IMG/VR virus record: IMGVR_UViG_3300032313_000663
Span: 1-54,303 of that record
Origin: a virus
Direction: 5' to 3' (one strand)
Length of the DNA: 54,303 nt
Below the pieces are notes generated by a model. It saw only the letters and a program-made list of their open reading frames with translations. It was not told where the DNA came from and did not search any database. Positions 10,344 to 24,941 of the stretch are shown here, in pieces. Position 1 is the stretch's first letter; every line of letters starts with the position of its first letter. A program made the position numbers and the translations under genes.

Positions 10344-10372
10344 TTGACAATAGACTGACCTCAGTCTACCAT
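10344..10372 (+). promoter_or_regulatory. promoter P1 with operator in spacer
   Basis: TTGACA, 17-base spacer, TACCAT. The spacer holds AGACTGA-CC-TCAGTCT (10352-10367), a 7+2+7 inverted repeat reaching the first base of the -10. The start codon at 10415 is 43 bases after the -10, as in P5, P6 and P7. The sequence from -35 to +10 is nearly identical to P7. Confidence 0.85.
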
Positions 10373-10414
10373 AGGGGCACAGTCGAAATCACCCCTCAGC
10401 AAAGGAGTCCACCA

Positions 10415-11500
10415 GTGAACACAACTCTCGCCGCTCCCGCATGGAAGTCTTACTGCGTCGGCACCATCGTCCGCCTCGACGACGGCCGCAACTTCCAGAT
10501 CAACGAGATCAGCATTGTCCATACGGACCGTGGCTACAACTCCCGCCGGTTCACGCTCTCCGGCCCCGGCGGCAAGACGGTGGTCAAGAGCAGCCGTGGA
10601 ATCACCCTCTGGGTGGCAGGCTTGGAGAACGATCGGGGCGAGCCGACGCCCGCCCCGAAGCCGATCGCCAAGCCTCCGGTCTCGCCGGTCGTCACGACGG
10701 CGGGCAAGATTCAGCACGCCTACTTCGAGGCCTTGCTGCGGATCGTCAAGGCACGTCGCAACTCGTGGCTCTGCGGCCCGGCGGGCAGCGGTAAGACGAC
10801 GTCGGCCAGCGAGGTGGCGAAGCTTCTCGGCCTGCGTTTCTTTGCCAAGTCTGTCGGCCCGCAGGTGACCGAGTCGAGCCTGCTCGGCTATCAGGACGCC
10901 AACGGTAAGACTGTCCGGACGCAGCTTCGCGAGGCTTTCGAGCATGGGGGCGTCTTCCTGCTCGACGAGGTCGATGCCGCCTCGCCTGCCGTGCTGGTCG
11001 TGATCAACGCCCTGCTCGCCAACGGCGAGGCTTCCTTCCCCGACGCGGTCGTCGAGAAGCATCCGGACTTCGTGTTGATCGCCGGGGCGAACACGATCGG
11101 CCTCGGTGCGGATCGCCAGTACGTGGGACGTCAGCAGATCGACGCTGCCACGCTCGATCGGTTCGTCCTGCTCGACTGGCCCTACGATCCCCGGATCGAG
11201 GCGGCTGCGGCTGGCGTGGCCGTGTCGGCTGTGTCGGCATCCGTCTGCCCCTCCCCTTTCCGCTTCGAGGGCGAGGACGGTGCGGAGGCTCGCTGCTACA
11301 AGTACGTAGAGCGGGTCGTCGCGATCCGCAACGCCGTGGCGGGCTTCGGCAAGGCGGTCCGCGTGATCGTCAGCCCCCGCGCCTCGATCAACGGCACTGC
11401 CCTGATCCGGCAGGGCTTCTCGATCGACGATGCCCTGAACCTCTGCGTCTGGAAAGGTCTGGATACGGACACCCGGAAGAAGATCGAGGGGGCTTGCTAA
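10415..11500 (+). CDS. MoxR/CobS-type AAA+ ATPase
   Basis: 361 residues from GTG 10415 (AAAGGAG ten bases upstream). The N-terminal ~90 residues form a beta-rich unit (GTIVRLDDGRNFQINEIS). The AAA+ domain follows a proline-rich linker: Walker A GPAGSGKTT (about 128-136), Walker B VFLLDEVDAA, sensor-1 region LIAGANT and TLDRFVLLDWPYD. This is the pattern of MoxR/CobS ATPases, which act as remodelling motors usually paired with a vWA-domain partner. The next gene may be such a partner. First gene behind promoter P1. Confidence 0.85.
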   Translation: MNTTLAAPAWKSYCVGTIVRLDDGRNFQINEISIVHTDRGYNSRRFTLSGPGGKTVVKSSRGITLWVAGLENDRGEPTPAPKPIAKPPVSPVVTTAGKIQHAYFEALLRIVKARRNSWLCGPAGSGKTTSASEVAKLLGLRFFAKSVGPQVTESSLLGYQDANGKTVRTQLREAFEHGGVFLLDEVDAASPAVLVVINALLANGEASFPDAVVEKHPDFVLIAGANTIGLGADRQYVGRQQIDAATLDRFVLLDWPYDPRIEAAAAGVAVSAVSASVCPSPFRFEGEDGAEARCYKYVERVVAIRNAVAGFGKAVRVIVSPRASINGTALIRQGFSIDDALNLCVWKGLDTDTRKKIEGAC

Positions 11501-11522
11501 ACTACGGACCTCCGTGTATACT
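11494..11522 (+). promoter_or_regulatory. promoter P2 with operator in spacer
   Basis: TTGCTA, 17 bases, TATACT. Spacer operator ACGGA-CC-TCCGT (11504-11515), perfect 5+2+5 inverted repeat. The -35 overlaps the stop of the MoxR gene. Start codon of the next gene is 34 bases after the -10. Confidence 0.8.
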
Positions 11523-11555
11523 CAACCACCACCCCGCCAATCAGGAGACTTACCA

Positions 11556-12368
11556 GTGAAGATCGTTCAGAAGAATTTCGAGTCGTTCGACGAGTTCGTC
11601 GCCCAGTCGCTCGTGGTCCCGGCCAACTGCCGGTCGAGCCGCCGCACCAACTCGCCAAGCTTTCACGGCACGGCGAACTTTGAGGAGGCCGTCGCGATCG
11701 CTCGCACCGGCTGGCCGGAGGGGGCCAAGAGGGCGGTCGAGATCGGTGCCAGCGTGTCGTCTGCGGTTCGCGACGTGATCAATGCAAACGCCTCCGGCTA
11801 CGCTTGGGACGTCGCTGGGCAGTTCATCGACATCGGCCGATATCTAACCGGAGAGCCCGAGTGCTTCGGCACGACGATCGAGGAAACGGACGCGATCAAG
11901 AGCCCGGTCATTAAGCTCGTGGTCAACTTGTCGGCGAGTGCGTCTGTCGGTGCCGACACGCTGGTGGCTCGTGGAGTGGCCGTCGTCGCAGCCGTCGATA
12001 TCCTCGAAGCGGCGGGTCGTCGCGTTGAGGTCGTGGCAGCGACGGCTCACTGCTCGTACAGCACCCAGCTTGAGATTCGCATTCCGGTCAAGTCTGCCGG
12101 TCAGCCGCTCGACATCGACCGTCTGGCGTTCTGCTTGGCTCACCCGTCGTGCTACCGTCGCCTGATCTGGAGCATCTCGGAGCAGCACGGCGTGCTGCCC
12201 TCCGCCTGCACACCAGAGAGCGTGACCCCGGAGGGCGACGAGATCGCCACCCGGCACTTCTACGGTGCCGTCGACAAGTCTCGCCTGCTCGATGAGATCA
12301 AGTGGATTTGCGACCAGTGCGGAGTCGAGATTCCGCAGAAACAGATCGACGCTCTGGCCGCAGCCTGA
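11556..12368 (+). CDS. possible vWA-like partner of the MoxR ATPase (DUF7192-like)
   Basis: 270 residues from GTG 11556 (AGGAGACTTACCA upstream). CRSSRRTNSPSFHGTANFEE and AVAIARTGWPEGAKRAVEIG form a conserved phage N-terminal pattern (S/R-rich, F-GT, EA--LA--GW-EG) that I recall as DUF7192. The centre, VKLVVNLSASASVGADTLVA followed by RGVAVVAAVDILEAAGRRVE, resembles the first strand and helix of a vWA domain with the metal motif DxSxS changed to NxSxS. MoxR ATPases typically work with vWA proteins, and the gene is adjacent. The vWA reading is inference; gene reality is certain. Confidence 0.75.
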   Translation: MKIVQKNFESFDEFVAQSLVVPANCRSSRRTNSPSFHGTANFEEAVAIARTGWPEGAKRAVEIGASVSSAVRDVINANASGYAWDVAGQFIDIGRYLTGEPECFGTTIEETDAIKSPVIKLVVNLSASASVGADTLVARGVAVVAAVDILEAAGRRVEVVAATAHCSYSTQLEIRIPVKSAGQPLDIDRLAFCLAHPSCYRRLIWSISEQHGVLPSACTPESVTPEGDEIATRHFYGAVDKSRLLDEIKWICDQCGVEIPQKQIDALAAA

Positions 12369-12380
12369 TTGTCTGGATAC
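12368..12380 (+). promoter_or_regulatory. ATTGTCTGGATAC box
   Basis: GTMYGGANNC box directly after the stop of the 11556 gene; continues as CGTCACC. The ATG is 29 bases beyond the box. No -35 hexamer at normal distance. Confidence 0.5.
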
Positions 12381-12408
12381 CGTCACCGCCAGCCGAGGAG
12401 ACTAAGCA

Positions 12409-12657
12409 ATGCACCAGATCAAACCGACGACATCGTTCGCAGGGACGCCGCGAGACCGGATGGCAGACGCACTGGCGTCAGTCGCCAACGCTCTCGAAGC
12501 GGCTCAGAGGCTCATGGGCGAGGCGACTCCCCACGGGCGTGACTACCGTGATCAATCGCAGTGGGCGATCGATCGCAGCGAGTCGGATCGTCGCATCCGT
12601 CTCGTCGAGGAGTTGGTGCGGCAATACTGGGCCGAGGCAGTCTCGGCCCAAGAGTGA
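12409..12657 (+). CDS. small helical protein, unknown
   Basis: 82 residues, Ala/Glu/Arg-rich helices (DRMADALASVANALEAAQRL ... RLVEELVRQYWAEAVSAQE). ATG 12409, with GAGGAG upstream. Not recognised. Confidence 0.65.
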   Translation: MHQIKPTTSFAGTPRDRMADALASVANALEAAQRLMGEATPHGRDYRDQSQWAIDRSESDRRIRLVEELVRQYWAEAVSAQE

Positions 12658-12683
12658 TCAAACATCAACGAAAGGGACAAGAC

Positions 12684-12911
12684 ATGGGTGCCATACTTCG
12701 ATGGGGGACGGTGCAGATCAACAGGCAACAGGTCGATGCGGCCTGTGAGTTTTTTGCGGACGATCCGTATGCGGCGCACCGTGTTCGCAAAGACGCGGAG
12801 GACTACGCCGGGTACTGGTTCAATGTTGAGCTACCAGCGGACGATGCTCGCAAGCTTGCGGCGTTCTTCGGGAAGGCGTGCTACGAGCGGGATGGCAGCG
12901 TTGGCAACTGA
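12684..12911 (+). CDS. small protein, unknown
   Basis: 75 residues, mixed alpha/beta (ILRWGTVQINRQQVDAACEF ... AEDYAGYWFNVELPADDARK). AAAGGGACAAGAC precedes the ATG. Not recognised. Confidence 0.65.
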   Translation: MGAILRWGTVQINRQQVDAACEFFADDPYAAHRVRKDAEDYAGYWFNVELPADDARKLAAFFGKACYERDGSVGN

Positions 12912-12923
12912 GGAGACTTACTT

Positions 12924-13115
12924 GTGAAGACATACAGACTTCGAGACGTCCGCTACTGGTGCGACCGCGAGACTCGCGTCTGGTGGGCGGCGCGGTATGA
13001 CGCCGACGGCAACCAGATCGGGGACGCGATTCATGCGGCCACGTTCGACGGCATCCGCCGGGAGATCGACGCCTGCCTTGTCGAGAATTCCGAAAAAACC
13101 CCAAAATCACCGTGA
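12924..13115 (+). CDS. small protein, unknown
   Basis: 63 residues from GTG, with GAGGAGACTTACTT before it. RDVRYWCDRETRVWWAARYD is a tryptophan-rich, beta-like core. Last gene of the operon started by P2; promoter P3 follows. Confidence 0.6.
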   Translation: MKTYRLRDVRYWCDRETRVWWAARYDADGNQIGDAIHAATFDGIRREIDACLVENSEKTPKSP

Positions 13116-13125
13116 TTTAGACCAC

Positions 13126-13154
13126 TTGCAATGTACGGAGGTCCGTGCTATAAT
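13126..13154 (+). promoter_or_regulatory. promoter P3 with operator in spacer
   Basis: TTGCAA, 17 bases, consensus TATAAT. Spacer operator ACGGA-GG-TCCGT (13135-13146), the only site with a GG centre apart from P7. Start codon 44 bases after the -10. Confidence 0.85.
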
Positions 13155-13197
13155 GCAGGGGTCGAGACGAGACACCAGCCACAAAGGAGACTTACCA

Positions 13198-13545
13198 GTG
13201 AACAACGAAACTTACGGCGTGACAGCCAAGCGGATCGCGAAGGGCAGCAAGAAGGTCGTGGTCGTGACGTTCGCCGACGGGAGCCAGAAGACCCTCGGCG
13301 GGGCAAGGGCTGAGCGGGCCACTGCCGTGGTTATCTGCCAGAGTGCAAGGCCCGATTGGGGCGGCACAGAAGGCCACTGGGCGTACAATCTGCACGTCGT
13401 CGGTCTGCGGTCGGACGCCTCGAAAGCGGCGGCTGAGGCTCGCGGGCTGCTTCACCCGGCACCGCCCCGCCCCAGCCGCGTGGACCGCAACCCCTCTCCC
13501 CGCCCCCCGGCCCTCAAGGCCGCAGCCATCACGGTCGAAGACTGA
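13198..13545 (+). CDS. small protein, unknown
   Basis: 115 residues, GTG start behind AAAGGAGACTTACCA. Beta-rich core (KKVVVVTFADGSQKTLGGAR, HWAYNLHVVGLRSDASKAAA), then a proline/arginine-rich low-complexity tail (residues ~85-108). Not recognised. Sole gene between P3 and P4. Confidence 0.6.
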   Translation: MNNETYGVTAKRIAKGSKKVVVVTFADGSQKTLGGARAERATAVVICQSARPDWGGTEGHWAYNLHVVGLRSDASKAAAEARGLLHPAPPRPSRVDRNPSPRPPALKAAAITVED

Positions 13546-13549
13546 CCAC

Positions 13550-13578
13550 TTGACACTGTTCGGACCTCAGCATATACT
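13550..13578 (+). promoter_or_regulatory. promoter P4 with operator, for a leaderless message
   Basis: TTGACA, 17 bases, TATACT. Spacer operator TCGGA-CC-TCAGC (13560-13571), an imperfect inverted repeat. Only six bases separate the -10 from the ATG at 13585, so the expected transcription start falls on the start codon and no ribosome site is present. Confidence 0.8.
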
Positions 13579-13584
13579 TCCGTC

Positions 13585-13779
13585 ATGAGCAACATCACCA
13601 AGCAACTCGAAAAACTCGCAGCCGCCCCGGCGGGCACGCTGCGTCGGATCGCCAAGACGTGGGTCTTGTTCGTTCCGAAAAGCTACGGAGCCGCTCGATT
13701 CAGCATCGACGGCCAAGAGTTCGACATCGACGGTGCGGTCGCGAGACTCACCCAGACCAACGAAGGAGACGCCAAGTGA
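13585..13779 (+). CDS. small protein from a leaderless message, unknown
   Basis: 64 residues (SNITKQLEKLAAAPAGTLRR, then KSYGAARFSIDGQEFDIDGA). The ATG lies six bases after the -10 of P4, so translation should be leaderless, unlike the neighbours, which have AAAGGAG. Next gene overlaps by 4 bases (GTGA). Not recognised. Confidence 0.65.
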   Translation: MSNITKQLEKLAAAPAGTLRRIAKTWVLFVPKSYGAARFSIDGQEFDIDGAVARLTQTNEGDAK

Positions 13780-14027
13780 ACACTCAATTCCAAGTCGGCC
13801 AGACCTACCGCTGCCGGTCGATCTGCGACCACAACTGCATCTGGGACTACACCGTCGTCGCCCGGACGGCCAAGACGGTAGTCCTGCTCGAAGCGGAGCA
13901 TCCGGCTCGTCGCCGGTCGTCCTTCCGTTGCAAGATCAAGGTCCACGAAGGCGTCGAGACCGTCAGCCCGCAAGGCCGGTTCTCGTTCGCTCCCGTCCTG
14001 ACCGCTGAGAAGCTTGTCACCGCCTGA
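13776..14027 (+). CDS. small protein, unknown
   Basis: 83 residues, GTG start after GAAGGAGACGCCAA. Beta-rich (FQVGQTYRCRSICDHNCIWD, VVARTAKTVVLLEAEHPARR) with three cysteines close together. Compact small beta-barrel likely; not recognised. Confidence 0.65.
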   Translation: MNTQFQVGQTYRCRSICDHNCIWDYTVVARTAKTVVLLEAEHPARRRSSFRCKIKVHEGVETVSPQGRFSFAPVLTAEKLVTA

Positions 14028-14030
14028 ATT

Positions 14031-14040
14031 GTCCGGATAC
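14031..14040 (+). promoter_or_regulatory. GTCCGGATAC box
   Basis: Preceded by AATT and followed by ACTCGCC; 34 bases from box end to the GTG at 14074, the same distance as -10 to start in P2. Confidence 0.5.
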
Positions 14041-14073
14041 ACTCGCCACCCTCAAGACTCAAGGAGACTCCCA

Positions 14074-14892
14074 GTGAACACCATCTACATCAACCTGAAG
14101 TCGAAGTCGAACTACGCCGCCGAGACTCTGATCCTGTCGGAGAACGGCAGCGGCATCCTGATCGGTGACGCCCCTGCCTTCGCCGCCCAGTGGGGCAAGA
14201 CGAACGCCAGCCACGGCGTCAGCTACACCGTGACCAACGAGGCAGGCGACGTCCTTGCCAGCGAGACAGTCAGCATCGCGATCAAGCCGCTTGCAGACAC
14301 GCTGCGGCTCGACTCGCGGCACCAGTTCTTCGGCGTGCTGGAGGCTCTCCAGCAGTACGTGGACAACTGCGAAGACGCTGAGTACCTCATCGAGGACTCG
14401 AAGCACGAGGAGTTTCGGGCCAAGCTGGACGCCGTCGCCGCCCTGCGGGATCAACTCGACGACGTGCTGGCGTCTCTGGCGGACGCACCTAAGTTCAAGA
14501 TCGAGCCGAAGCCGGAGGTTGGCATCCCGCAGCCGAAGCAAGTCGAGTTGCACCTCGGCCCATCGGCGTCGTTCACGAAATACTCCAAGCGGGTCAAGGC
14601 GTTGGGCGGCAAGTACACCGACTGCCGTGGCAACACCTACAAGCGTTTCGTGACCCTGCCGTGGACCCCCGAAGGCCGCGAGTTGGCCGACAAGCTCGTC
14701 GCAGAGTTTGGCTGGAGCAAGGACACAACCCTGATCGTGCGTGGCGTCGACAGGTTCCGAAACAAGCACGTTCACGCTTGTGTGGTCGTTCATCACGTCG
14801 CCGCAAGCGAGGGCAACGCCTGCGAGCGGCTGCTCGCGAAGTACGAGGCCGCTTTCGAGCGAGCCTTCCCCGATTGTCTCGCAAGTGTTTAG
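14074..14892 (+). CDS. unknown 272-residue protein
   Basis: GTG start after CAAGGAGACTCCCA. N-terminal beta-rich domain (1-85), central helical region (LEALQQYVDNCEDAEYLIED ... LDAVAALRDQLDDVLASLAD, about 93-150), proline-rich linker, and a C-terminal unit beginning FTKYSKRVKALGGKYTDCRG. No family recognised. One of the largest proteins of this region; its C-terminal unit ends FGWSKDTTLIVRGVDRF. Behind the GTCCGGATAC box. Confidence 0.7.
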   Translation: MNTIYINLKSKSNYAAETLILSENGSGILIGDAPAFAAQWGKTNASHGVSYTVTNEAGDVLASETVSIAIKPLADTLRLDSRHQFFGVLEALQQYVDNCEDAEYLIEDSKHEEFRAKLDAVAALRDQLDDVLASLADAPKFKIEPKPEVGIPQPKQVELHLGPSASFTKYSKRVKALGGKYTDCRGNTYKRFVTLPWTPEGRELADKLVAEFGWSKDTTLIVRGVDRFRNKHVHACVVVHHVAASEGNACERLLAKYEAAFERAFPDCLASV

Positions 14893-14901
14893 TACGGACG
14901 C
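14892..14901 (+). promoter_or_regulatory. GTACGGACGC box
   Basis: Starts at the last base of the preceding TAG stop (TTTAGTACGGACGC) and continues CATCACC; 31 bases before the GTG at 14933. Confidence 0.55.
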
Positions 14902-14932
14902 CATCACCTCAAGACCGAAAGGAACCAAACCC

Positions 14933-15226
14933 GTGAACATCATCAAGCCCGGCCAGACCGTCTACATCATCCGTCGCTTCCCCTCGTGGGGTATCGAGGA
15001 CAACGTGGTCAAGCAAGTCTTGACCTACGACGGTCGCGAGTACAACGAGTCGCACGGCGACGACTGCTATATCGGCTTCAAGCACGCACGAGAGTGGCAC
15101 AAGCACGACGAGGTCTATGTGATTGAGAACGACGCCAAGCTGGCTCTCGCCGCCAAGCTTCGCGACGAGGCGAAGTCGCGCGTGGCGTGGGCAAAGAAAC
15201 TTGAAAAGGAGGTCGCCAATGCGTGA
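14933..15226 (+). CDS. small protein, unknown
   Basis: 97 residues from GTG 14933 (GAAAGGAACCAAACCC upstream). Beta N-terminus (IIKPGQTVYIIRRFPSWGIE), charged helical C-terminus (LALAAKLRDEAKSRVAWAKK). N-terminal part could be a small SH3-like fold. Not recognised. Confidence 0.65.
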   Translation: MNIIKPGQTVYIIRRFPSWGIEDNVVKQVLTYDGREYNESHGDDCYIGFKHAREWHKHDEVYVIENDAKLALAAKLRDEAKSRVAWAKKLEKEVANA

Positions 15227-15392
15227 ATGCCCCTGCGGCTCAGGCTGCAAAAGTTGGTGGGAGAACGACGCCCGTGGAATCCCACTGGCTCGCGTCTGCC
15301 CGAAGTGTCGAGCCCAGAAGCTCGCGAAGTTTCGACCCGAAGTGTTGACCAACCCTCAGTACGAGACCGACGAACCCATAGAAGGAGACTGA
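15219..15392 (+). CDS. small zinc-ribbon protein
   Basis: 57 residues. CPCGSGCKSWWENDARGI ... VCPKCRAQKL has five cysteines forming a probable zinc ribbon. ATG 15219 follows AAAAGGAGGTCGCC inside the upstream gene, an 8-base overlap. Function unknown. Confidence 0.65.
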   Translation: MRECPCGSGCKSWWENDARGIPLARVCPKCRAQKLAKFRPEVLTNPQYETDEPIEGD

Positions 15393-15395
15393 CCC

Positions 15396-15584
15396 GTGGA
15401 ACTCATCATCAAAATCAACCTCGACAACGACGCCTTCGTCGAGAGCAAGTTCGAGGTCGCACGCTGCCTCTCGAAGGTGGCTGGCGAAATCCTCGACACG
15501 CCGGGGCAAGGCTGCGTGAATAGCAGCGGCATCATCCGCGACTCGAACGGCAACGGCGTCGGACAGTGGGACATCATCGACTGA
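15396..15584 (+). CDS. small protein, unknown
   Basis: 62 residues, GTG after AGAAGGAGACTGACCC. IIKINLDNDAFVESKFEVAR then SNGNGVGQWDII resembles a short phage pattern (beta strand, D-ND-AF) seen in small hypotheticals. Function unknown. Confidence 0.6.
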   Translation: MELIIKINLDNDAFVESKFEVARCLSKVAGEILDTPGQGCVNSSGIIRDSNGNGVGQWDIID

Positions 15585-15586
15585 TA

Positions 15587-15596
15587 GTACGGACTC
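15587..15596 (+). promoter_or_regulatory. GTACGGACTC box
   Basis: Directly after a TGA-TAG pair; continues CATCACC; 30 bases before the ATG at 15627. Confidence 0.55.
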
Positions 15597-15626
15597 CATC
15601 ACCCATCACCTGAAAGGAACCCAGCA

Positions 15627-15842
15627 ATGTTTGTTTGGCCCAGCATCACCGGAAGAATCCAGTGTCAGAACAAGCCATTCTCGCCGATCGTCCCCGAGAC
15701 TCTCGGCGAGGCTGCGAGTCTCGAAAAGACCACGATCGAGTACCTGTGTTTGGCGGCGGTGTATCAGTTGCTCGAAGAGGGCAAGCTGACTCCCGCCGAC
15801 ATCCAGCAAGCATTTAAGCGAGGTGAATCTTCATCGTTGTGA
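15627..15842 (+). CDS. small protein, unknown
   Basis: 71 residues, ATG after GAAAGGAACCCAGCA. Helical second half (LEKTTIEYLCLAAVYQLLEE, then LTPADIQQAFKRG). Stop overlaps the next GTG. Confidence 0.6.
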   Translation: MFVWPSITGRIQCQNKPFSPIVPETLGEAASLEKTTIEYLCLAAVYQLLEEGKLTPADIQQAFKRGESSSL

Positions 15843-15925
15843 ACCCGGAACTCGTGAGACTCGCCACCGTGGCGCAAGTCCAACTTCGACAGGTCACTCT
15901 CAAGACTAAGGCGGTGCTGAAGTGA
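15839..15925 (+). CDS. tiny ORF, unknown
   Basis: 28 residues (MNPELVRLATVAQVQLRQVT plus a basic tail). It is held only by GTGA overlaps at both ends and AGGTGA upstream; without it there would be an 80-base gap inside a tightly packed operon. Could be a non-coding spacer. Confidence 0.45.
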   Translation: MNPELVRLATVAQVQLRQVTLKTKAVLK

Positions 15926-16200
15926 AACCATTCCGACTCTCAGCCAACTGGGTGGCCTACGCACACGGCCCGGCGGCGGACGATCGCCAGCCGTCGGCAG
16001 TCGAACTCTGCGACCTGATCACGGAGCGAGACTACGTGCTGGTGCCGGGCGACCGGCTCGACCTCATCAGGGAGATCATCGACGTGGCAGGCCTGTACTC
16101 GTCGGCCTACGGCGGCGACCGGGAGGAGAAGCTTCAGGCGGCACGGGCGAGGCAGTTGATTCAACGAGCGTGCAAGCACATCGAGGAGACAAGCAAGTGA
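15922..16200 (+). CDS. small helical protein, unknown
   Basis: 92 residues, GTG in a GTGA overlap. ELCDLITERDYVLVPGDRLD followed by long helices (EEKLQAARARQLIQRACKHI). Not recognised. Confidence 0.6.
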   Translation: MKPFRLSANWVAYAHGPAADDRQPSAVELCDLITERDYVLVPGDRLDLIREIIDVAGLYSSAYGGDREEKLQAARARQLIQRACKHIEETSK

Positions 16201-17046: not shown

Positions 17047-17075
17047 TTGACATACTACTGACCTCCGTCTATACT
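17047..17075 (+). promoter_or_regulatory. promoter P5 with operator in spacer
   Basis: TTGACA, 17 bases, TATACT. Operator ACTGA-CC-TCCGT (17057-17068). GTGTCATAGC lies upstream (17023-17032). Start codon 43 bases after the -10; the leader shares GTGAACGACACCT with that of P6. Confidence 0.85.
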
Positions 17076-17858: not shown

Positions 17859-17861
17859 CAC

Positions 17862-17890
17862 TTGACAGTCTGCTGACGTCAGCATATACT
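17862..17890 (+). promoter_or_regulatory. promoter P6 with perfect operator palindrome
   Basis: TTGACA, 17 bases, TATACT. Spacer holds TGCTGACGTCAGCA (17871-17884), a perfect 14-bp palindrome. GCGTCATAGC sits just upstream. Start codon 43 bases after the -10. Confidence 0.85.
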
Positions 17891-18262: not shown

Positions 18263-18306
18263 TCGAGACTTGAATCCCAACACACCACCAACCAGAGGAG
18301 ACTCCC

Positions 18307-18807: not shown

Positions 18808-19010
18808 GCGACAACGAAACCAACGACGACATCGCGTGGCGGCTCCTGCGGGAGGCTCGCTACGCCAAGCCGAGCCGGAAGGTCGAGGCGTGCCACCGGG
18901 CGGCGGCGTGGCTCGACGAGGGTCCGTGCGACGACGACGGGCTCCTCGACGAGATGCACGCGGAACTGGCGGAGATCGAGTTAGCAATCCCAGAGTGGCA
19001 AAGGAGGTGA
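18804..19010 (+). CDS. small helical protein, unknown
   Basis: 68 residues, acidic and helical (DDIAWRLLREARYAKPSRKV, LLDEMHAELAEIELAIPEWQ). Not recognised. Confidence 0.55.
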   Translation: MSDNETNDDIAWRLLREARYAKPSRKVEACHRAAAWLDEGPCDDDGLLDEMHAELAEIELAIPEWQRR

Positions 19011-19013
19011 CCA

Positions 19014-19319
19014 GTGACCGCAACACGTAAGTTTCTGGACGGCCTCGTCGAGGCCCGGCTGGTGGACGAAGAAATCTGGGCAGTGACGTGCAAGGGCATC
19101 GAGTTGGGCACGATCGAGCATCACCGGGGAGACCGGGACTGGATCGCGACCAATCGGTGGGAGATTCACGGCAGCAGGGTGAAGTACGGCTTCGCCGGTA
19201 CTCACCTGATGCACCGCTACTCTCACGGGTTCAACACTCTTGAGAGTGCCGTTACGGAACTGTGCCGGTGGAAGTCTGGAATGCTCATCACCCTCTTACC
19301 TGAAGGAGACGACAAGTGA
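19014..19319 (+). CDS. small protein, unknown
   Basis: 101 residues from GTG after AAAGGAGGTGACCA. Alpha/beta with paired strands (IWAVTCKGIELGTIEHHRGD, WEIHGSRVKYGFAGTHLMHR). GTGA overlap to the next gene. Not recognised. Confidence 0.6.
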   Translation: MTATRKFLDGLVEARLVDEEIWAVTCKGIELGTIEHHRGDRDWIATNRWEIHGSRVKYGFAGTHLMHRYSHGFNTLESAVTELCRWKSGMLITLLPEGDDK

Positions 19320-19585
19320 ACACCGTCTACACCCCTGAAGCCCTTGAGCGAAGCGTTGCCAAGGGCAAGTACAAGACTTGCCTCTTGCGAGACCTCAGTA
19401 AGACCGACACCGACGACGCGTTCGTCTTCGTGTTTCCGTCGCCTGACTTGATCAACGCCGAGAACGGCGACGGCAACTTCCTCGAAGTCTGGGACTACGA
19501 CCGCGACCTGTCGAGCGTCACCACGAGCCGTGGCGACATCGCGACCACGCCCGAGACCGTCATCTACTACACGTGGGAGGACTGA
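19316..19585 (+). CDS. small acidic protein, unknown
   Basis: 89 residues. YTPEALERSVAKGKYKTCLL, DDAFVFVFPSPDLINAENGD; mixed alpha/beta. GAAGGAGACGACAA precedes the GTG. Confidence 0.6.
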   Translation: MNTVYTPEALERSVAKGKYKTCLLRDLSKTDTDDAFVFVFPSPDLINAENGDGNFLEVWDYDRDLSSVTTSRGDIATTPETVIYYTWED

Positions 19586-19587
19586 GC

Positions 19588-19791
19588 ATGAAGAAGTGGA
19601 GAGTCCGTAGCTGGAAGACTCACAACGCCAGAACCCTTCGAGGGGCGGTGATCAAGCTCATGGTTCACAACGAGGTGATCGCGGCACAGATCAAGACCGA
19701 TGCGTTGCGTTTTTTCTACGAGAAGCACCCGGAGGATCGCGACGGGCTGACCGTCACGGCGTCTCCGCTGAAAGTGAGGACAGGGACATGA
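19588..19791 (+). CDS. small basic protein, unknown
   Basis: 67 residues, basic (MKKWRVRSWKTHNARTLRGA). Possible nucleic-acid binder from charge alone. ATG 19588 after GGGAGGACTGAGC; the in-frame upstream codons belong to the previous gene. ATGA overlap with the next. Confidence 0.6.
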   Translation: MKKWRVRSWKTHNARTLRGAVIKLMVHNEVIAAQIKTDALRFFYEKHPEDRDGLTVTASPLKVRTGT

Positions 19792-20060
19792 GCAACGAAT
19801 TCATCACGACTGACCACGCCTACGACACGCTCGACTTGCTGCGGCGCAGCGTCGAAGACTTAACGTCGCTCCGGCGGATTCTCCGCCGCGCACGGCGTCA
19901 GGGCAAAAGCGTTCACCCCGGCAAGTCTCGTGAGACGCTCTCGTCGTGCATTGCCGACCTGATTGAGTCTTGCGCCCACCTGTCGCAGGGCGACGACGCC
20001 GACCGGATCGATTTGAGCAAGGAACTGGCGGCACGCATCATCAAGGAGGACTTGCAGTGA
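19788..20060 (+). CDS. small helical protein, unknown
   Basis: 90 residues, helical; a basic loop (LRRILRRARRQGKSVHPGKS) lies between two helices. GTGA overlap downstream. Not recognised. Confidence 0.6.
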   Translation: MSNEFITTDHAYDTLDLLRRSVEDLTSLRRILRRARRQGKSVHPGKSRETLSSCIADLIESCAHLSQGDDADRIDLSKELAARIIKEDLQ

Positions 20061-20284
20061 GCAACGACGACCGCCTGACGGGAGACGATCAGCAACTTCT
20101 GGACGATTGCGTTAACCACTTGCGGGGCACCATCCGACTGCGGGTGCCGGTCAGCATCTGCGGCTCAGTCCGTACTTGGATGCACAGGTACCTCGTCGGC
20201 GTGGGCTTGCTGTGGGGACAAGCTGCCGAGACAAACGAATACGAGAGACTTGTTTCTCTGGTCAAGCAAAGGGTCGAAGCATGA
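20057..20284 (+). CDS. small protein, unknown
   Basis: 75 residues, GTG after CAAGGAGGACTTGCA. Helical (LTGDDQQLLDDCVNHLRGTI ... NEYERLVSLVKQRVEA). Overlaps the next ATG. Confidence 0.55.
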   Translation: MSNDDRLTGDDQQLLDDCVNHLRGTIRLRVPVSICGSVRTWMHRYLVGVGLLWGQAAETNEYERLVSLVKQRVEA

Positions 20285-20583
20285 GTCTCCCCCTCTATCC
20301 CGGTGCATCTCCGTGCGTCGGATCAGGCTACTGCTGCAAGGTGCGTCCGTGCCCGTTTGGCGAGGGGACGCCGTGCGTGCATCTCGTGCCGGTCGACGGG
20401 CTGCGGTACACGTGCGGCATCGCGGAGGAGATCATGACGAAGCCGGGATGGGAACTCTCGCCAGCGTTCGGCGCGGGCTGCTCGTCGACGCTTTTCAACT
20501 CTGACCGAGACCGGATAATTCGCTTGGCTCGCCAGCACAGTACGGATACCATCACCACAACCATAGAAAGGACAATCGAGTGA
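20281..20583 (+). CDS. cysteine-cluster protein
   Basis: 100 residues. CVGSGYCCKVRPCPFGEGTP, PCVHL, YTCGI and GAGCSS give eight cysteines. The G-YCCK--PC-FG pattern is that of small phage and bacterial Cys-cluster proteins presumed to bind a metal or Fe-S centre. Function unknown. The GTACGGATAC box (20540) lies inside its 3' end. Confidence 0.65.
   Translation: MSLPLYPGASPCVGSGYCCKVRPCPFGEGTPCVHLVPVDGLRYTCGIAEEIMTKPGWELSPAFGAGCSSTLFNSDRDRIIRLARQHSTDTITTTIERTIE
20540..20549 (+). promoter_or_regulatory. GTACGGATAC box
   Basis: Inside the 3' end of the Cys-cluster gene; continues CATCACC; 30 bases before the GTG at 20580. Its presence within coding sequence means the following gene can be controlled separately. 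Confidence 0.5.
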
Positions 20584-20966
20584 GAAAGAAACGCACAGTC
20601 GCCAAACAGGTCAACGACCCCCTGAAGTACGTGCGGGAGTTCGCACCGTCGCTCACGGTGGCACGGGCAAGTCTCCTGCCGTTTGAAGACCTGATCATGG
20701 CCGAGTCTGCCGGGCCTCAGAACGGCGACCCGGAGGAGCCCTACTTCGAGATCACGATCGACACGATCCAGTACGGCCCCGACGCACGTGTTCTGGCTCA
20801 CGTGACGGCGGAGGCCGTGACAATGACCATCGTCGAACTGCTGTTCGACGAGGACGGAGAAGTCGAAGACGATTTCGAGATGGACTCTTGGAAGTGCAGC
20901 CTCGAAGGGCTGTGGGAGTATCTGCGGCAACTGCCACGCCCTGCCCGATCGTTTTGCCGCCGTTGA
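20580..20966 (+). CDS. unknown protein
   Basis: 128 residues, GTG (GAAAGGACAATCGA upstream). Basic N-terminus (MRKKRTVAKQVNDPLKYVRE), beta-rich middle (YFEITIDTIQYGPDARVLAH) and acidic stretch (DEDGEVEDDFEMD). Not recognised. Confidence 0.6.
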   Translation: MRKKRTVAKQVNDPLKYVREFAPSLTVARASLLPFEDLIMAESAGPQNGDPEEPYFEITIDTIQYGPDARVLAHVTAEAVTMTIVELLFDEDGEVEDDFEMDSWKCSLEGLWEYLRQLPRPARSFCRR

Positions 20967-21013
20967 TTTAATCGGCCGACATCGTAACAATAACGTCAGA
21001 GGAGACCCATATC

Positions 21014-21307
21014 GTGACCGCACCACTTGTCACTCCGCCGATCGCCAAACTCGTGTTGACTCGCGAGGCTGCAAAGATTCTCGAATGCTCCATGCGTCAG
21101 GTTCGCGCTCTTGCCGTTGCTGGCAAGATCAAGTCGTGGCCGCTTGGCCCGAAGTCTTTCGCGTATGACCTCGAAGAGCTACAGGCTCGCAAGTCCACGC
21201 TCGCCGCTGGCCGGAAAGCCGGGACGATCCGGGGGGCACTGCCGCAGGGATTTAAGGCCGACATCGCCCCGCAAGACCGGGTCAAGAAGAAGGCCAAGAA
21301 AAAATAA
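21014..21307 (+). CDS. excisionase/MerR-type HTH DNA-binding protein
   Basis: 97 residues, GTG after AGAGGAGACCCATATC. LTREAAKILECSMRQVRALA followed by VAGKIKSWPLGPKSFAYDLE is a winged HTH of the MerR/excisionase (helix-turn-helix 17) type; the C-terminus is lysine-rich (VKKKAKKK). Candidates for its role are excision or reading one of the repeated control sites. It is followed by a terminator-like hairpin and promoter P7. Confidence 0.75.
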   Translation: MTAPLVTPPIAKLVLTREAAKILECSMRQVRALAVAGKIKSWPLGPKSFAYDLEELQARKSTLAAGRKAGTIRGALPQGFKADIAPQDRVKKKAKKK

Positions 21308-21312
21308 TCGCA

Positions 21313-21336
21313 AAACCCCTGTTTTCACGGGGGTTT
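21313..21336 (+). terminator. terminator-like hairpin
   Basis: AAACCCC (21313-21319) pairs with GGGGTTT (21330-21336), loop of 10 bases, no long T run beyond the stem. It follows the HTH gene stop by six bases. Confidence 0.5.
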
Positions 21337-21343
21337 CTGCCTA

Positions 21344-21372
21344 TTGACAATAGACTGAGGTCCGTATACCAT
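21344..21372 (+). promoter_or_regulatory. promoter P7 with operator in spacer
   Basis: TTGACA, 17 bases, TACCAT. Operator ACTGA-GG-TCCGT (21354-21365). Bases from -35 to about +10 match P1 almost completely, including the ACCATAGGGGCACAGTC tail. Start codon 43 bases after the -10. Confidence 0.85.
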
Positions 21373-21414
21373 AGGGGCACAGTCAAACGACACCTCGAAC
21401 CAAAGGAGCCTCCC

Positions 21415-22185
21415 GTGAACGCCAACTTCTTCCGCAACTCGACGCTTGAGAAGCCAGCCAAGAACCGCCGCTGCCCGTGCAGCCGCTGTGGCGGCAGTGG
21501 CATCTTCTACATTCACGGCACGTGCTTCCGCTGCGGCGGAAGCAGAGTCGATCCCACCTATCTGACATGGGCCTACCCCGCCGCGTGGACCGACGAGCAG
21601 TGTCAGGCTCACGTTGACTCGCTTAACGCCAAGAACGCCGCCGCCCGCGACCGGGCTGCTGCCAAGAAGAAGGCCAAGACCGACGCGATCTACTCCGCCA
21701 ACGTCGCCCGCTGCCCGGCTCTGGCCCGGCTCACAGACGACGACTTCCGGGGCCAGTTCGACGGCTTCGTGATCGACATCCGGGCCAAGTCTTTCTCGTT
21801 CGCCCTGTCCGATCGTCAGGCTGACGCCCTGACGCGGGCCGTCGAGGCTAAGGACGCGTTCCTTGCCCGGCGGGCGGCTCAGAAGGCCGAGGCGATCGCC
21901 AACGCCAAGCCGATCCCGGCAGGGCGTGTCGAGATCGAGGGCACGGTCCTGTCGATCAAGGAGTACAGCCTGACCGTCGGCTACAACACGAACGTCACGA
22001 GCCTCAAGGCTCTGATCCAGTGCGACGGCTACAAGCTGTTTGGCACCTTGCCCGCCAGCATCGTCGAGGAAGCCAAGGTGGGCGACCGGGTCAGCCTGAC
22101 CGCGACCGTGAAGGAGAAGGAAGCTGGCTTCGGCACCTACAGCCGTCCGACCGGCGGCGAGATTCTGGTGCCCGTCACCGCTTGA
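21415..22185 (+). CDS. DnaJ-type zinc-finger plus OB-like protein
   Basis: 256 residues, GTG after AAAGGAGCCTCCC. CPCSRCGGSGIF ... CFRCGGSR (about 20-43) is a CxxCxGxG zinc unit as in DnaJ. A helical middle follows, and the last ~85 residues (GRVEIEGTVLSIKEYSLTVG ... LKALIQCDGYKLFGTLPASI, VGDRVSLTATV) look like an OB fold. This architecture recurs in phages; a nucleic-acid-binding role is likely, the exact task unknown. First gene behind P7. Confidence 0.7.
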   Translation: MNANFFRNSTLEKPAKNRRCPCSRCGGSGIFYIHGTCFRCGGSRVDPTYLTWAYPAAWTDEQCQAHVDSLNAKNAAARDRAAAKKKAKTDAIYSANVARCPALARLTDDDFRGQFDGFVIDIRAKSFSFALSDRQADALTRAVEAKDAFLARRAAQKAEAIANAKPIPAGRVEIEGTVLSIKEYSLTVGYNTNVTSLKALIQCDGYKLFGTLPASIVEEAKVGDRVSLTATVKEKEAGFGTYSRPTGGEILVPVTA

Positions 22186-22192
22186 CCGAATT

Positions 22193-22202
22193 GTCTGGAC
22201 TC
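22193..22202 (+). promoter_or_regulatory. GTCTGGACTC box
   Basis: Seven bases after the previous stop; continues GTTTACC; 37 bases before the ATG at 22240. Confidence 0.5.
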
Positions 22203-22239
22203 GTTTACCATCCCACCCCCAACGAAGGAGAGATCACCG

Positions 22240-22653
22240 ATGAGCTTCACAGCATTCCACTGCACGTGCCAGAAGTGCGGCAAGCGGTTCTGGGCTTACC
22301 CCAACCGCAAGGGGTCGAGCGGCACCTATCCAAAGTTCTGCTCGCGTGCCTGCTACACGGCAGACGTGAAGCAGACGGCGGAGTGCAACCGTCTCAGGCG
22401 TGAGCGGAAAGAGCAGTCGACCGTTCGCGTCCCGGCCAAGTTCTACAGAGATCACGACGAGCGCGGCTGCGAGCCGGTCAAGAGGTCGAGCCGGTTCGTC
22501 TGGCTTCTGCCATCCGATCCCGGCCTCGATGAACTGCTCGACGACGCACGGCACTATGCAGACCCGGACTCATTCGGCAGCGAGTACGCAGACCTGAGAC
22601 GGTCCGCAGCGGCGACGGTCAAGGCGATCGAGGCGGCGAAGGTCAGCAAGTAA
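22240..22653 (+). CDS. zinc-finger protein, unknown
   Basis: 137 residues. CTCQKCGKRFWAYPNRKGSS ... KFCSRACY is a CxxC...CxxxC zinc finger near the N-terminus like those in phage HNH-associated proteins, but no HNH core follows. C-terminal part helical. ATG after GAAGGAGAGATCACCG. Confidence 0.6.
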   Translation: MSFTAFHCTCQKCGKRFWAYPNRKGSSGTYPKFCSRACYTADVKQTAECNRLRRERKEQSTVRVPAKFYRDHDERGCEPVKRSSRFVWLLPSDPGLDELLDDARHYADPDSFGSEYADLRRSAAATVKAIEAAKVSK

Positions 22654-22679
22654 CACCACCAACAGCAAAGGGGCTACCA

Positions 22680-22934
22680 GTGAACAGCTACGCAATCATC
22701 AACGACACGGCGGTCCTCGATCAGGCCCTGAGCCTCTGCCGAGGCAGCTACCAGCGTGACATCCTCTTGGGTCGCGAGTCTCTGTCTGGCTCGACGCTCA
22801 AGGGAAAGGCCAAGGGCTACGGCGGCAGATATAAGGCGTCCGCCGCCTCGATCTTGCGGAAGTGCCAACTCGCCGGTCTCGCGGTTCGCGAGGAGGCCGG
22901 TCTGCGGGGCAAGCGACTCGTCGTCGTCGGTTAG
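22680..22934 (+). CDS. small basic protein, unknown
   Basis: 84 residues, GTG after AAAGGGGCTACCA. Helix-rich with a glycine/lysine loop (LKGKAKGYGGRYKASAASIL) and a C-terminal helix-strand (KCQLAGLAVREEAGLRGKRL); could be a small HTH. Not recognised. Confidence 0.6.
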   Translation: MNSYAIINDTAVLDQALSLCRGSYQRDILLGRESLSGSTLKGKAKGYGGRYKASAASILRKCQLAGLAVREEAGLRGKRLVVVG

Positions 22935-22943
22935 TACGGACTC
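22934..22943 (+). promoter_or_regulatory. GTACGGACTC box
   Basis: Begins at the last base of the preceding TAG; continues ATTCACC; 29 bases before the GTG at 22973. Confidence 0.55.
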
Positions 22944-22972
22944 ATTCACCCTCAACGGCAAAGGAGACACCA

Positions 22973-23272
22973 GTGAACATCGTTTTAGACGCCGACACGA
23001 GCGACTGCCCCGGTGCGATCTGCAAGGTGCTGAACTCGACCGAGTCACGCTCGATCCTCGTGCAGCAAGACACCGACGCGCCGGGCGTGGCGTCTGCATT
23101 CGGTTGGTCGCCCCGGTACGTGACGTCGATCGCGGGGTGCAGGCACCTCACGACCGACGGCACGGTCGACTGCCAAGAGTGCGGCGTGAAGGCGATCCAG
23201 TTCATCGAGTCTGCGATCGAGTTCTTGAACGACAACGACGGGGCCGTCGCGGACGACCCCGGCTACTTCTAA
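22973..23272 (+). CDS. small protein, unknown
   Basis: 99 residues, GTG after CAAAGGAGACACCA. SILVQQDTDAPGVASAFGWS and HLTTDGTVDCQECGVKAIQF; a single CxxC. Acidic tail. Resembles recurrent phage pattern with V-QTDWD-PG-A--FGW in actinobacteriophages. Function unknown. Confidence 0.65.
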   Translation: MNIVLDADTSDCPGAICKVLNSTESRSILVQQDTDAPGVASAFGWSPRYVTSIAGCRHLTTDGTVDCQECGVKAIQFIESAIEFLNDNDGAVADDPGYF

Positions 23273-23282
23273 GGAGACGCCA

Positions 23283-23642
23283 GTGAAGCTTCCAGATCAT
23301 CTGTCAGTGTTCGAGGGCGACCTGTGGGACAACCGCAGCAAGCCGAGCAGGGTCGTGCGGTCGAGCTACAGCAAGCACGTGCGAGACATCAAGACTGCGG
23401 AAGACGTGAAGGCGTGCCTCCGGGCCGGGCCTTACGCGTGGCCGGGTGGGTATGCGTGCTTCTTCATCACGAGCGACGGTGCGGTGCTGTCGTTCGAGGC
23501 GGCAAAGAAGGGCTTCTTGCAGATCATCTGCTCGCTGAAGGAAGGCGATCACGGCACTGGCTGGCACATCTGCGGTCTGGGCTGCACGGCGGACGAGGAC
23601 GAGACGCCAGTATGCGAACACACGGGCAAGGCAATCGACTAA
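23283..23642 (+). CDS. unknown protein
   Basis: 119 residues, GTG after TAAGGAGACGCCA. TAEDVKACLRAGPYAWPGGY and CFFITSDGAVLSFEAAKKGF, ending GLGCTADEDETPVCEHTGKA. The AGPYAWPGGYP-YFIT-DG--L-F-----E pattern recurs in phage hypotheticals. Function unknown. Confidence 0.65.
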   Translation: MKLPDHLSVFEGDLWDNRSKPSRVVRSSYSKHVRDIKTAEDVKACLRAGPYAWPGGYACFFITSDGAVLSFEAAKKGFLQIICSLKEGDHGTGWHICGLGCTADEDETPVCEHTGKAID

Positions 23643-23654
23643 AGGAGGTGGGCT

Positions 23655-24002
23655 GTGGAGAAGATCGACATCGGTAACGCGACGATCCTGCTCGATGCAG
23701 TGGACACGGACCGCGACGGGCGGACCGTCTACGGCTACTCGATCAGGATCGGTGGAGTCGAGCCGACGCATCAGGCTCGCGACCTGAAAAGCGGCTGTCA
23801 GGGCGGCACGGAGCGGGAGGGACTTGCGAGTCTCCTGTCGTTCCTGTCGGCAGCAGCCGAGTCTCGGCAGTACCGGGAACGGACTGGACGAGAGGGCGAC
23901 AACGAGGACTTGTTCCCGCCGGAGATCGTTGACTGGGCGTGCCAGTACAGCGACGAGATTGCGGTGGCATCGATCGAACTTGAAGGAGGTGACCAGTGTT
24001 GA
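23655..24002 (+). CDS. unknown protein
   Basis: 115 residues, GTG after AAAGGAGGTGGGCT. Beta N-terminus (IDIGNATILLDAVDTDRDGR), helical and acidic C-terminus. 7-base overlap with the next gene. Not recognised. Confidence 0.6.
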   Translation: MEKIDIGNATILLDAVDTDRDGRTVYGYSIRIGGVEPTHQARDLKSGCQGGTEREGLASLLSFLSAAAESRQYRERTGREGDNEDLFPPEIVDWACQYSDEIAVASIELEGGDQC

Positions 24003-24256
24003 ATGTTCGCGTCGAACATACGGATACGTTCGCTGGCGAAGCAAACTACGGCTGGGTTCACCGGCACGAGTTTGAGGCGGTCGACAACGCAAGCCGCAGG
24101 ACACTCGTGCGGCGAGCGAAGGCGGAGTGCGGGCTTACGAACGAGCCGTGCGACGTCATTGAATGGGGAGACGAGATCACGATCAAGCCTCGTGGGCTTC
24201 ATCAGATCGTCTTCGTTACTTGTGAGACGAAAGAGGACACCAATGAGCAAGAGTAA
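23996..24256 (+). CDS. small protein, unknown
   Basis: 86 residues, GTG 23996 after GAAGGAGGTGACCA (a TTG three bases later is possible). Beta-rich (VRVEHTDTFAGEANYGWVHR, LHQIVFVTCETKED). EHTDTFAGEANY...  matches a recurrent plasmid/phage pattern; no function known. Overlaps next ATG by 14 bases. Confidence 0.6.
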   Translation: MLNVRVEHTDTFAGEANYGWVHRHEFEAVDNASRRTLVRRAKAECGLTNEPCDVIEWGDEITIKPRGLHQIVFVTCETKEDTNEQE

Positions 24257-24614
24257 GAACCTGATCCACGTGATTCACCCGTACTGGGACCAAGGCAGTC
24301 TCGTGTTCGACGACCCGAGCGTGGGGCTCGAAGGCGAGCCGTTCGTTGCCGGTGCCGACATTGCCTTGGGCGTGCTGGCCTCGGCGGTGAAGGGATGCAA
24401 GAAGGAGTTCACTCTCGTGTTCAGCCATCTCGCGTTCCCGGGTCACCAACTGAAGGCGACTCGCGGCAAGGCTGAGGCTGGCGGCTACTGGTATCACTGG
24501 GACGCGATCGGCATCGACGGATGGCTGTGCCCGGCACTGTTCAAGTATTTCGACAAGGCACCCAAGAGCATCTACGTGCAGATCACACCTCGACAAAAGA
24601 AAGAGGTGAAGTAG
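24243..24614 (+). CDS. DUF6717-like protein
   Basis: 123 residues. IHVIHPYWDQGSLVFDDPSV, GLEGEPFVAGADIALGVLAS, YWYHWDAIGIDGWLCPALFK, YFDKAPKSIYV. The VFDD--VGL--EPFVAG and GWLCPALF-YF--AP--IYV elements fit a small uncharacterised family I recall as DUF6717. No known function. Stop shares a base with the next GTG. Confidence 0.65.
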   Translation: MSKSKNLIHVIHPYWDQGSLVFDDPSVGLEGEPFVAGADIALGVLASAVKGCKKEFTLVFSHLAFPGHQLKATRGKAEAGGYWYHWDAIGIDGWLCPALFKYFDKAPKSIYVQITPRQKKEVK

Positions 24615-24916
24615 TGAAACTCGTCAGGGAAGACACGTATCGCGTCAGCGAGCGAGTCCTAATTACTCGCGGCGATCGGTTCACGGCCACGGGAGGGCCA
24701 TATTGGAAGTCGAAGGACGGCACGAAGGTGCCGCTCAAAAGTTACGGACCCTATACGTTCCACGCCCACGTGAAGCGTGGTGCTGTTGAGTGGATCGAGT
24801 GTCTCGACAAAGACGGCTGCTTCGCTGTTCTGCACGTCGCAGGGCGAAGGAAGCGGATCGACGGATCGCTTGTGGCAAGACCCTATACCGTGAAAGGAAA
24901 AAAACGTAGGGCTTGA
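24614..24916 (+). CDS. small basic protein, unknown
   Basis: 100 residues, GTG after AAGAGGTGAAGTA. Beta-rich (RVSERVLITRGDRFTATGGP, YTFHAHVKRGAVEWIECLDK) with a basic C-terminus. Last gene before P8. Confidence 0.6.
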   Translation: MKLVREDTYRVSERVLITRGDRFTATGGPYWKSKDGTKVPLKSYGPYTFHAHVKRGAVEWIECLDKDGCFAVLHVAGRRKRIDGSLVARPYTVKGKKRRA

Positions 24917-24941
24917 CCCAAACTCCTGACCTCCGTACAAT
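24913..24941 (+). promoter_or_regulatory. promoter P8 with operator shifted toward the -10
   Basis: TTGACC, 17 bases, TACAAT. Operator CCTGA-CC-TCCGT (24925-24936), displaced two bases toward the -10 relative to most others. Drives the DUF932 gene; start codon 42 bases after the -10. Confidence 0.8.

What the first reader, a model, noticed from the sequence alone, without database searches (positions are those of the whole stretch)
10344..24941. Eight promoters share an inverted-repeat operator placed exactly inside the 17-bp spacer
Seen: P1 10344, P2 11494, P3 13126, P4 13550, P5 17047, P6 17862, P7 21344 and P8 24913 all have -35 and -10 hexamers 17 bases apart, and each spacer contains (A/G/T/C)C(T/G)GA-NN-TC(C/A)G(T/C), symmetrical with 5+2+5 bases; P1 has 7+2+7 and P6 is a 14-bp perfect palindrome. 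P1 and P7 are near copies, P5 and P6 share leader sequence, and four have exactly 43 bases from -10 to start codon. Inference: one dimeric repressor, probably phage-encoded (candidates 1823-2302 and 21014-21307), shuts down at least eight operons by covering the spacer, or these are duplicated, movable regulatory cassettes. This is like a distributed immunity network, but the operators sit in the promoters rather than in genes.
Basis: partly seen in the sequence, partly recalled or inferred. Interest (0 to 1): 0.8.

Follow-up and report, generated by a model that had tools for sequence, protein, structure and literature searches.

The report
Phage early promoters sharing repressor sites
An uncultivated phage puts the same small mirror-symmetric DNA site inside eight of its early promoters, and its relatives put different sites at the same spots, which suggests one phage repressor and its whole set of switches changing recognition sequence together.

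Summary
Eight of the ten TTGNNN-N17-TANNNT sequences on the + strand of the window carry C[TG]GA-NN-TC[AC]G in the spacer; 200 shuffles gave none. Uncultivated relatives have the same arrangement with other spacer sites: GCCTA-SS-TNGGC, CACCGR-NN-YCGGTG, TGTGACGTCGCA, CCGGACGTCTG, ACCGACGTCGGT, GCGACGTCGC. In clear orthologous promoters the leader stays 67-93% identical while the spacer falls to 41-59%; phages sharing an operator type keep spacers 76-100% identical. P8's unusual offset persists through three operator types, so sites change in place. The best candidate regulator is gene A (21014-21307), a BldC/Xis/SoxR-like winged-HTH protein. In all 15 gene A loci examined it lies 32-65 bp upstream of an operator-bearing promoter, and in several types its own promoter carries a weakened matching operator. 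Binding, repression and immunity are inferred, not shown. Dispersed phage operators are known (BPs, L5, phiC31); new here are the spacer placement at nearly every strong early promoter, several operator types switched as sets, and the candidate family.

The parts
10344..10372 (+). P1, operator CTGACCTCAG at 10355-10364; drives the CobS-like AAA gene at 10415
11494..11522 (+). P2, operator CGGACCTCCG at 11505-11514; drives the DUF7192 gene at 11556
13126..13154 (+). P3, operator CGGAGGTCCG at 13136-13145
13550..13578 (+). P4, operator CGGACCTCAG at 13561-13570; only 6 bases to the ATG at 13585, probably a leaderless mRNA
17047..17075 (+). P5, operator CTGACCTCCG at 17058-17067
17862..17890 (+). 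P6, operator CTGACGTCAG at 17873-17882, perfect 14-bp palindrome
21344..21372 (+). P7, operator CTGAGGTCCG at 21355-21364; near copy of P1, directly downstream of gene A
24913..24941 (+). P8, operator CTGACCTCCG at 24926-24935, centred 5 bp rather than 7 bp upstream of the -10; the offset is kept in relatives
20963..20991 (+). Probable promoter of gene A (TTGATT-17-AACAAT) with a degenerate operator core, GCCGACATCGT, in the spacer
21014..21307 (+). Gene A, 97-aa winged-HTH protein (BldC/Xis/SoxR-like), best candidate for the operator-binding repressor
21310..21340 (+). GC-rich inverted repeat (AAACCCC...GGGGTTT) between gene A and P7, a possible terminator; not reported by the terminator scan
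   Evidence: sequence; not found
1823..2302 (+). Gene B, 159-aa protein with two tandem winged-HTH domains (TraN-like); rival candidate regulator
415..1317 (-). Tyrosine integrase, the sign that the phage is temperate

Best explanation
Eight early promoters of a temperate, uncultivated phage each carry one binding site for the same phage-encoded dimeric repressor in the 17-bp spacer between -35 and -10. Bound there, the repressor keeps RNA polymerase off, so one protein can silence the early region at once (inferred). The repressor is most likely gene A (21014-21307), a small MerR/Xis-like winged-HTH protein that also limits its own expression through a weakened operator in its own promoter (inferred). 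Related phages keep the promoters but have changed the recognition sequence of the whole set of sites, as expected if repressor and operators diverge together into different immunity types. Shown: the sites, their placement, their replacement as sets, and the position of gene A. Inferred: binding, repression, role in lysogeny.
For: 8 of 10 strict + strand promoters carry the site, 0 in 200 shuffles. Same placement with other palindromes in relatives, 7-10 copies in class III. Spacer changed while leader is conserved in orthologous promoters; spacers conserved between phages of one operator type. P8 offset kept across classes I, II and IV. Gene A lies 32-65 bp upstream of an operator-bearing promoter in all 15 loci examined, and its own promoter holds a degraded class-matched operator in classes II, III and VII. 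Gene A folds as a winged HTH nearest to BldC, phage Xis and SoxR. G21 and class III share the half-site ACCGA and the helix motif SM[GS]H[LIV]R although their gene B proteins are only 40% identical. Integrase present.
Against: No binding data. Class I and class II gene A proteins share the helix motif SMRQVR although their operators differ, so residues elsewhere must discriminate. Operator promoters are dense here, so gene A's adjacency to one is weaker evidence than it looks. Class V sites are poorly palindromic. The Pfam match of gene A is below the curated cut-off (18 against 27) and the Foldseek E-values are weak (best 0.022). Most of the other small early genes were screened for HTH motifs only by eye, and the record lacks part of the genome, where another repressor could lie.
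Confidence: 0.58

Rival explanations
1. The sites bind gene A, but gene A is an early-to-late shut-off factor of lytic growth (Cro-like), not the lysogeny repressor. Lysogeny is kept by gene B or by a protein in the missing part of the genome.
For: Gene A lies within the early region on the lytic strand, with a strong promoter of its own in G2 and G6 (TTGACA-17-GATAAT) and a weakened operator, so it would be made early and accumulate. Gene B sits beside the integrase, a common place for lysogeny regulators.
Against: Distinct operator types in close relatives are what immunity selection produces; a pure lytic shut-off factor has less reason to diverge. The data do not exclude it.
Confidence: 0.2
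2. Gene B (1823-2302), the tandem winged-HTH protein by the integrase, is the repressor that binds the spacer palindromes.
For: DNA-binding fold, present throughout the clade (29 loci), next to the integrase, resembles the transfer repressor TraN.
Against: Its second recognition helix (TDA[MAS]VMRD) is nearly invariant among classes I, II and III, whose operators differ. Gene B of G21 groups with class V and VII phages although its operator matches class III. A monomeric tandem protein suits an asymmetric site better, and an asymmetric motif, GTNYGGAY, occurs in gene B's own leader.
Confidence: 0.1
3. The spacer sites bind a MerR-type activator that makes the promoters work, rather than a repressor.
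For: Gene A has a MerR-superfamily fold, and MerR proteins bind palindromes in promoter spacers (PMC9909328).
Against: MerR activation acts on 19-20 bp spacers (PMC9909328); here the spacers are 16-17 bp with near-consensus hexamers, which should need no activation.
Confidence: 0.06
4. A host regulator binds the sites, or the promoters are mobile cassettes copied around the genome without a dedicated phage regulator.
For: P1 and P7 are near copies and P5/P6 share leader sequence.
Against: Orthologous promoters keep individual leaders and the odd P8 offset while the operator changes. Close relatives (for example window and G2, CobS 92% identical) have different operator sets, which a shared host factor would not produce, though the hosts are unknown.
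Confidence: 0.06

Closest known systems
Mycobacteriophage BPs gp33 repressor and its dispersed operators (PMC4557955)
   Same: A 12-bp palindrome between -35 and -10 of the early lytic promoter, and several dispersed operators at further promoters, bound by one small phage repressor
   Different: BPs has about five loci, and a full operator made of two 12-bp half sites; its repressor gene holds attP. Here there are 8-10 promoters with single 12-14 bp sites, and the candidate gene is not at the attachment site
Cluster A mycobacteriophage (L5/Bxb1) repressor, operators and stoperators (PMC6550527, PMC9283540)
   Same: Many sites per genome in one orientation, consensus differing between heteroimmune relatives
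   Different: L5 sites are asymmetric, bound by a monomer, and mostly outside promoters; here they are palindromic and inside promoter spacers
Streptomyces phage phiC31 repressor sites (dispersed sites mentioned in PMC4557955; the rest from general knowledge)
   Same: Dispersed inverted-repeat repressor sites, with the repressor transcribed in the same direction as the lytic genes
   Different: phiC31 uses repressor isoforms, and its details were not available in the library searched
MerR-family regulators and minimal relatives BldC, Xis, CvkR (PMC9909328, PMC5859096, PMC9938897)
   Same: Gene A is predicted to share the winged-HTH fold, and MerR proteins bind palindromes in promoter spacers
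   Different: Spacer is 16-17 bp instead of 19-20 bp; gene A is 97 aa with no recognised effector domain; BldC binds direct repeats
Cluster K mycobacteriophage start-associated sequences with extended inverted repeats (PMC3203893)
   Same: Repeated inverted repeats upstream of a subset of genes, with consensus differing between subclusters
   Different: 17-bp repeats with a variable gap tied to translation starts, not placed in a promoter spacer

Membership tests
Dispersed-operator phage repressor systems in the broad sense (BPs, phiC31, L5) | Several copies of one binding-site type at lytic promoters of one phage | tested here: met
   8 sites in the window, 7-10 in class III relatives
Dispersed-operator phage repressor systems in the broad sense (BPs, phiC31, L5) | A phage protein that binds the sites and represses | not testable with these tools
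   Needs gel shift and reporter assays; gene A is the candidate
Cluster A stoperator system | Asymmetric sites, mostly outside promoters | tested here: not met
   All eight sites are palindromic and lie in promoter spacers
Cluster A stoperator system | Site consensus differs between related phages as a set | tested here: met
   Classes I-VII
BPs gp33 type | Palindromic operator between -35 and -10 of the early promoter | tested here: met
BPs gp33 type | attP inside the repressor gene (integration-dependent immunity) | tested here: inconclusive
   Gene A lies about 20 kb from the integrase, but attP was not mapped and the repressor's identity is unproven
BPs gp33 type | Full operator of two 12-bp half sites with a variable gap | not tested
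   No systematic search for a second site beside each palindrome
MerR family (gene A) | N-terminal winged-HTH fold | tested here: met
   AlphaFold model, nearest folds BldC, Xis, SoxR, but weak E-values and HTH_17 below the Pfam cut-off
MerR family (gene A) | 19-20 bp promoter spacer | tested here: not met
   Spacers are 16-17 bp
MerR family (gene A) | C-terminal coiled coil and effector domain | tested here: inconclusive
   Only 97 aa; predicted helix 52-68 followed by a lower-confidence tail

The most novel reading that the evidence does not exclude
A clade of uncultivated temperate phages uses a minimal MerR-superfamily winged-HTH protein as its immunity repressor, acting on the spacers of 8-12 early promoters, and the repressor and its entire operator set have switched specificity together several times while the promoters themselves stayed in place.
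Probability: 0.33. Interest if true: 0.75.

Novelty: new variant of a known kind. Interest (0 to 1): 0.58.

Why it matters
How a repressor with many operators can change its recognition sequence without losing control is a poorly understood step in the evolution of phage immunity (stated as such in PMC6550527). Here orthologous promoters in close relatives show the same sites with different operator sequences and intact flanks, so intermediate repressors and operators could be tested directly. It would also add a family of small repressors and matched 17-bp-spacer promoters of different specificities, useful as orthogonal gene switches.

Tried and rejected
Chance: rejected by shuffles. Cultured phages: no megablast match to the 10-25 kb region, no match to gene B, and only a weak 34% hit to gene A in Pseudomonas phage Lu11. 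Bacterial genomes: two scans of GTDB contigs, with CobS and gene B alignments, found no relative, so the host is unknown. An IMG/VR scan with the strict class I promoter pattern gave 11 single matches that were not followed up. G10 and G11, distant CobS hits, showed no spacer operator set. No tRNA genes in the window. The terminator scan found fewer hits than shuffles and did not flag the repeat after gene A. Literature on phiC31 was not in the library as a direct paper. Whole-protein identity of gene A does not track operator class: window and G2 are 62% identical with different operators, G3 and G7 52% identical with the same operator; only the recognition helix tracks it in part. Two failed calls were simple input errors.
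Full report
Observation. All eight promoters are in the sequence as described. The palindrome core CKGANNTCMG alone is only mildly enriched in the window (12 against 7.0 expected), but its placement is not chance: of ten + strand sequences fitting TTGNNN-N17-TANNNT in 54,303 bases, eight contain it in the spacer, and 200 dinucleotide shuffles contain none. An independent consensus scan of 10.2-25.1 kb lists 12 promoter-like sites against 2.0 expected, and P1-P8 head the list.

Setting. The window is the complete database record of an uncultivated virus. Nearly all genes are on the + strand. A tyrosine integrase on the - strand at 415-1317 indicates a temperate phage. The region holds a PhoH-like gene (9616-10305), a CobS-like AAA gene after P1, a DUF7192 gene after P2, and helicases at 26448 and 31307. 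No cultured phage or GTDB genome gave a close relative, so the host is unknown.

Relatives. CobS, gene A and gene B searches brought in IMG/VR relatives, which were read in full or in part. Labels: G2 = L023-026, G3 = L027-031, G5 = L051, G6 = L052-054, G7 = L055-056, G8 = L057-061, G9 = L062-064, G12 = L113-114, G13 = L115-116, G14 = L117-118, G21 = L119-120, G23 = L121-122, G16 = L123. They have strong early promoters with a repeated spacer site of different sequence. Class I (window): ACKGA-SS-TCMGT. Class II (G2, G6): GCCTA-SS-TNGGC, for example GGCCTACGTAGGCC. Class III (G3, G7, G8, G9): CACCGR-NN-YCGGTG, 7-10 copies each by a fixed pattern. Class IV (G12): TGTGACGTCGCA. Class V (G13, G14; less symmetric): CCGGACGTCTG and CTGGCATCCCC. 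Class VI (G21): ACCGACGTCGGT. Class VII (G23): GCGACGTCGC. Most share a GA-SS-TC centre. Classes III and VI have the same half-site, so the number of distinct specificities is six or seven, with class V the least certain. G5 has a class I-like variant, GCTGACCTCTGC.

Operators change in place. Comparing clear orthologous promoters of the window with those of G2 and G6 (P1, P2, P4, P8 and the promoter of gene A), the 45 bases downstream are 67-93% identical (in P1 the upstream 25 bases are 88-92%), while the spacer is 41-59% identical. Between G2 and G6, which share an operator type, spacers are 76-100% identical. The pairing was done by leader similarity; several other pairs (P3, P5, P6, P7) are paralogous or uncertain and are not used. 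P8 is centred 5 bp upstream of the -10 rather than 7, and its orthologs with class II and class IV operators keep that offset. Sites therefore change sequence without moving, which speaks against mobile cassettes and for selection by a changing protein.

Which protein. The helix-turn-helix genes found in the window by the searches made are A (21014-21307) and B (1823-2302); most other small early and left-arm genes were inspected only by eye. Gene A: in all 15 loci examined (some from near-identical phages) its stop codon is followed within 32-65 bp by an operator-bearing promoter, although its genomic position differs between classes. G8 has a second copy, also before an operator promoter. 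Because operator promoters are dense in this region, the linkage is supportive, not decisive. The promoter of gene A carries a degraded operator of the matching type: CACCGACAGCGGAG, CACCGATCCAGGAG or CATCGGTGG in class III, TCCTATCTCACG in class II, CACGACGACGGAG in class VII. In classes I and IV only the core is recognisable, and in classes V and VI none was seen. Gene A is more diverged between the window and G2 (62-66%) than most neighbours (79-94%). AlphaFold gives a winged HTH (pLDDT 74.8) whose nearest solved folds are BldC, phage Xis and SoxR, with weak E-values. G21 and class III share the half-site ACCGA and the helix motif SM[GS]H[LIV]R, although their B proteins are only 40% identical and G21's B groups with classes V and VII. 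Against A: classes I and II share the helix SMRQVR although their operators differ. Gene B is a predicted tandem winged-HTH protein resembling TraN, a monomeric transfer repressor (PMC10877727). Its second recognition helix is nearly unchanged among classes I-III, so it is the weaker candidate for the palindromes.

Mechanism. Hexamers near consensus with 17-bp spacing should work unaided, and a dimer in the spacer would exclude polymerase. MerR-type activation needs 19-20 bp spacers (PMC9909328), so repression is the likelier outcome. This is inference from anatomy. Whether gene A keeps lysogeny or shuts down early genes during lytic growth cannot be decided here.

Comparison. BPs gp33 has a 12-bp palindrome between -35 and -10 of PR and several dispersed operators (PMC4557955). 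Cluster A phages have dispersed asymmetric stoperators that differ between heteroimmune relatives (PMC6550527). The present case is the same kind of thing, with spacer placement at nearly every strong early promoter, several specificities, and a different candidate protein family. It is filed as a new variant of a known kind.

Noticed in passing
window 1800, 2327, 12370, 14030, 14891, 15586, 20539, 22192, 22933, 26432, 29439, 33450, and ten phages including relatives: A second, asymmetric motif [AT]GT[AC][CT]GGA[CT], mostly in one orientation and often 30-50 bases before start codons, 4-9 times more frequent than in shuffles in ten phages and conserved across all operator classes. It sits in gene B's own leader; a stoperator-like site or a promoter element are both possible.
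   Followed up: partly
window 10321, 17023, 17850; also G2, G3, G6, G7, G8, G9, G13, G14: An upstream element GYGTCATA ends either 4-7 or 15-17 bp before the -35 of many operator promoters, two positions about one helical turn apart, as an activator site might.
   Followed up: partly
window 1712-1754: TGTCCCCGCCAC, shared with G2 and G3 between integrase and gene B, looks like the 3' end of a tRNA gene and may be the attP core.
   Followed up: no
window 13550-13585; G6 4771: P4 lies 6 bases from its ATG, so its mRNA is probably leaderless; the same arrangement is kept in G6.
   Followed up: no
window 1823-2302 and 29 loci: Gene B is a predicted tandem (pseudo-dimeric) winged-HTH protein resembling TraN, conserved across a wide clade of uncultivated phages.
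   Followed up: partly
window 1435-1662, - strand: A small conserved gene (about 76 aa, 80% identical in G2) between the integrase and gene B, of unknown function.
   Followed up: no
window 6709-8132: Internal duplications of 44-136 bp at 80-89% identity within the left-arm genes.
   Followed up: no
L084: A 22.8-kb contig with a gene B 100% identical to the window's, probably the same species and reaching beyond the window's left end.
   Followed up: no
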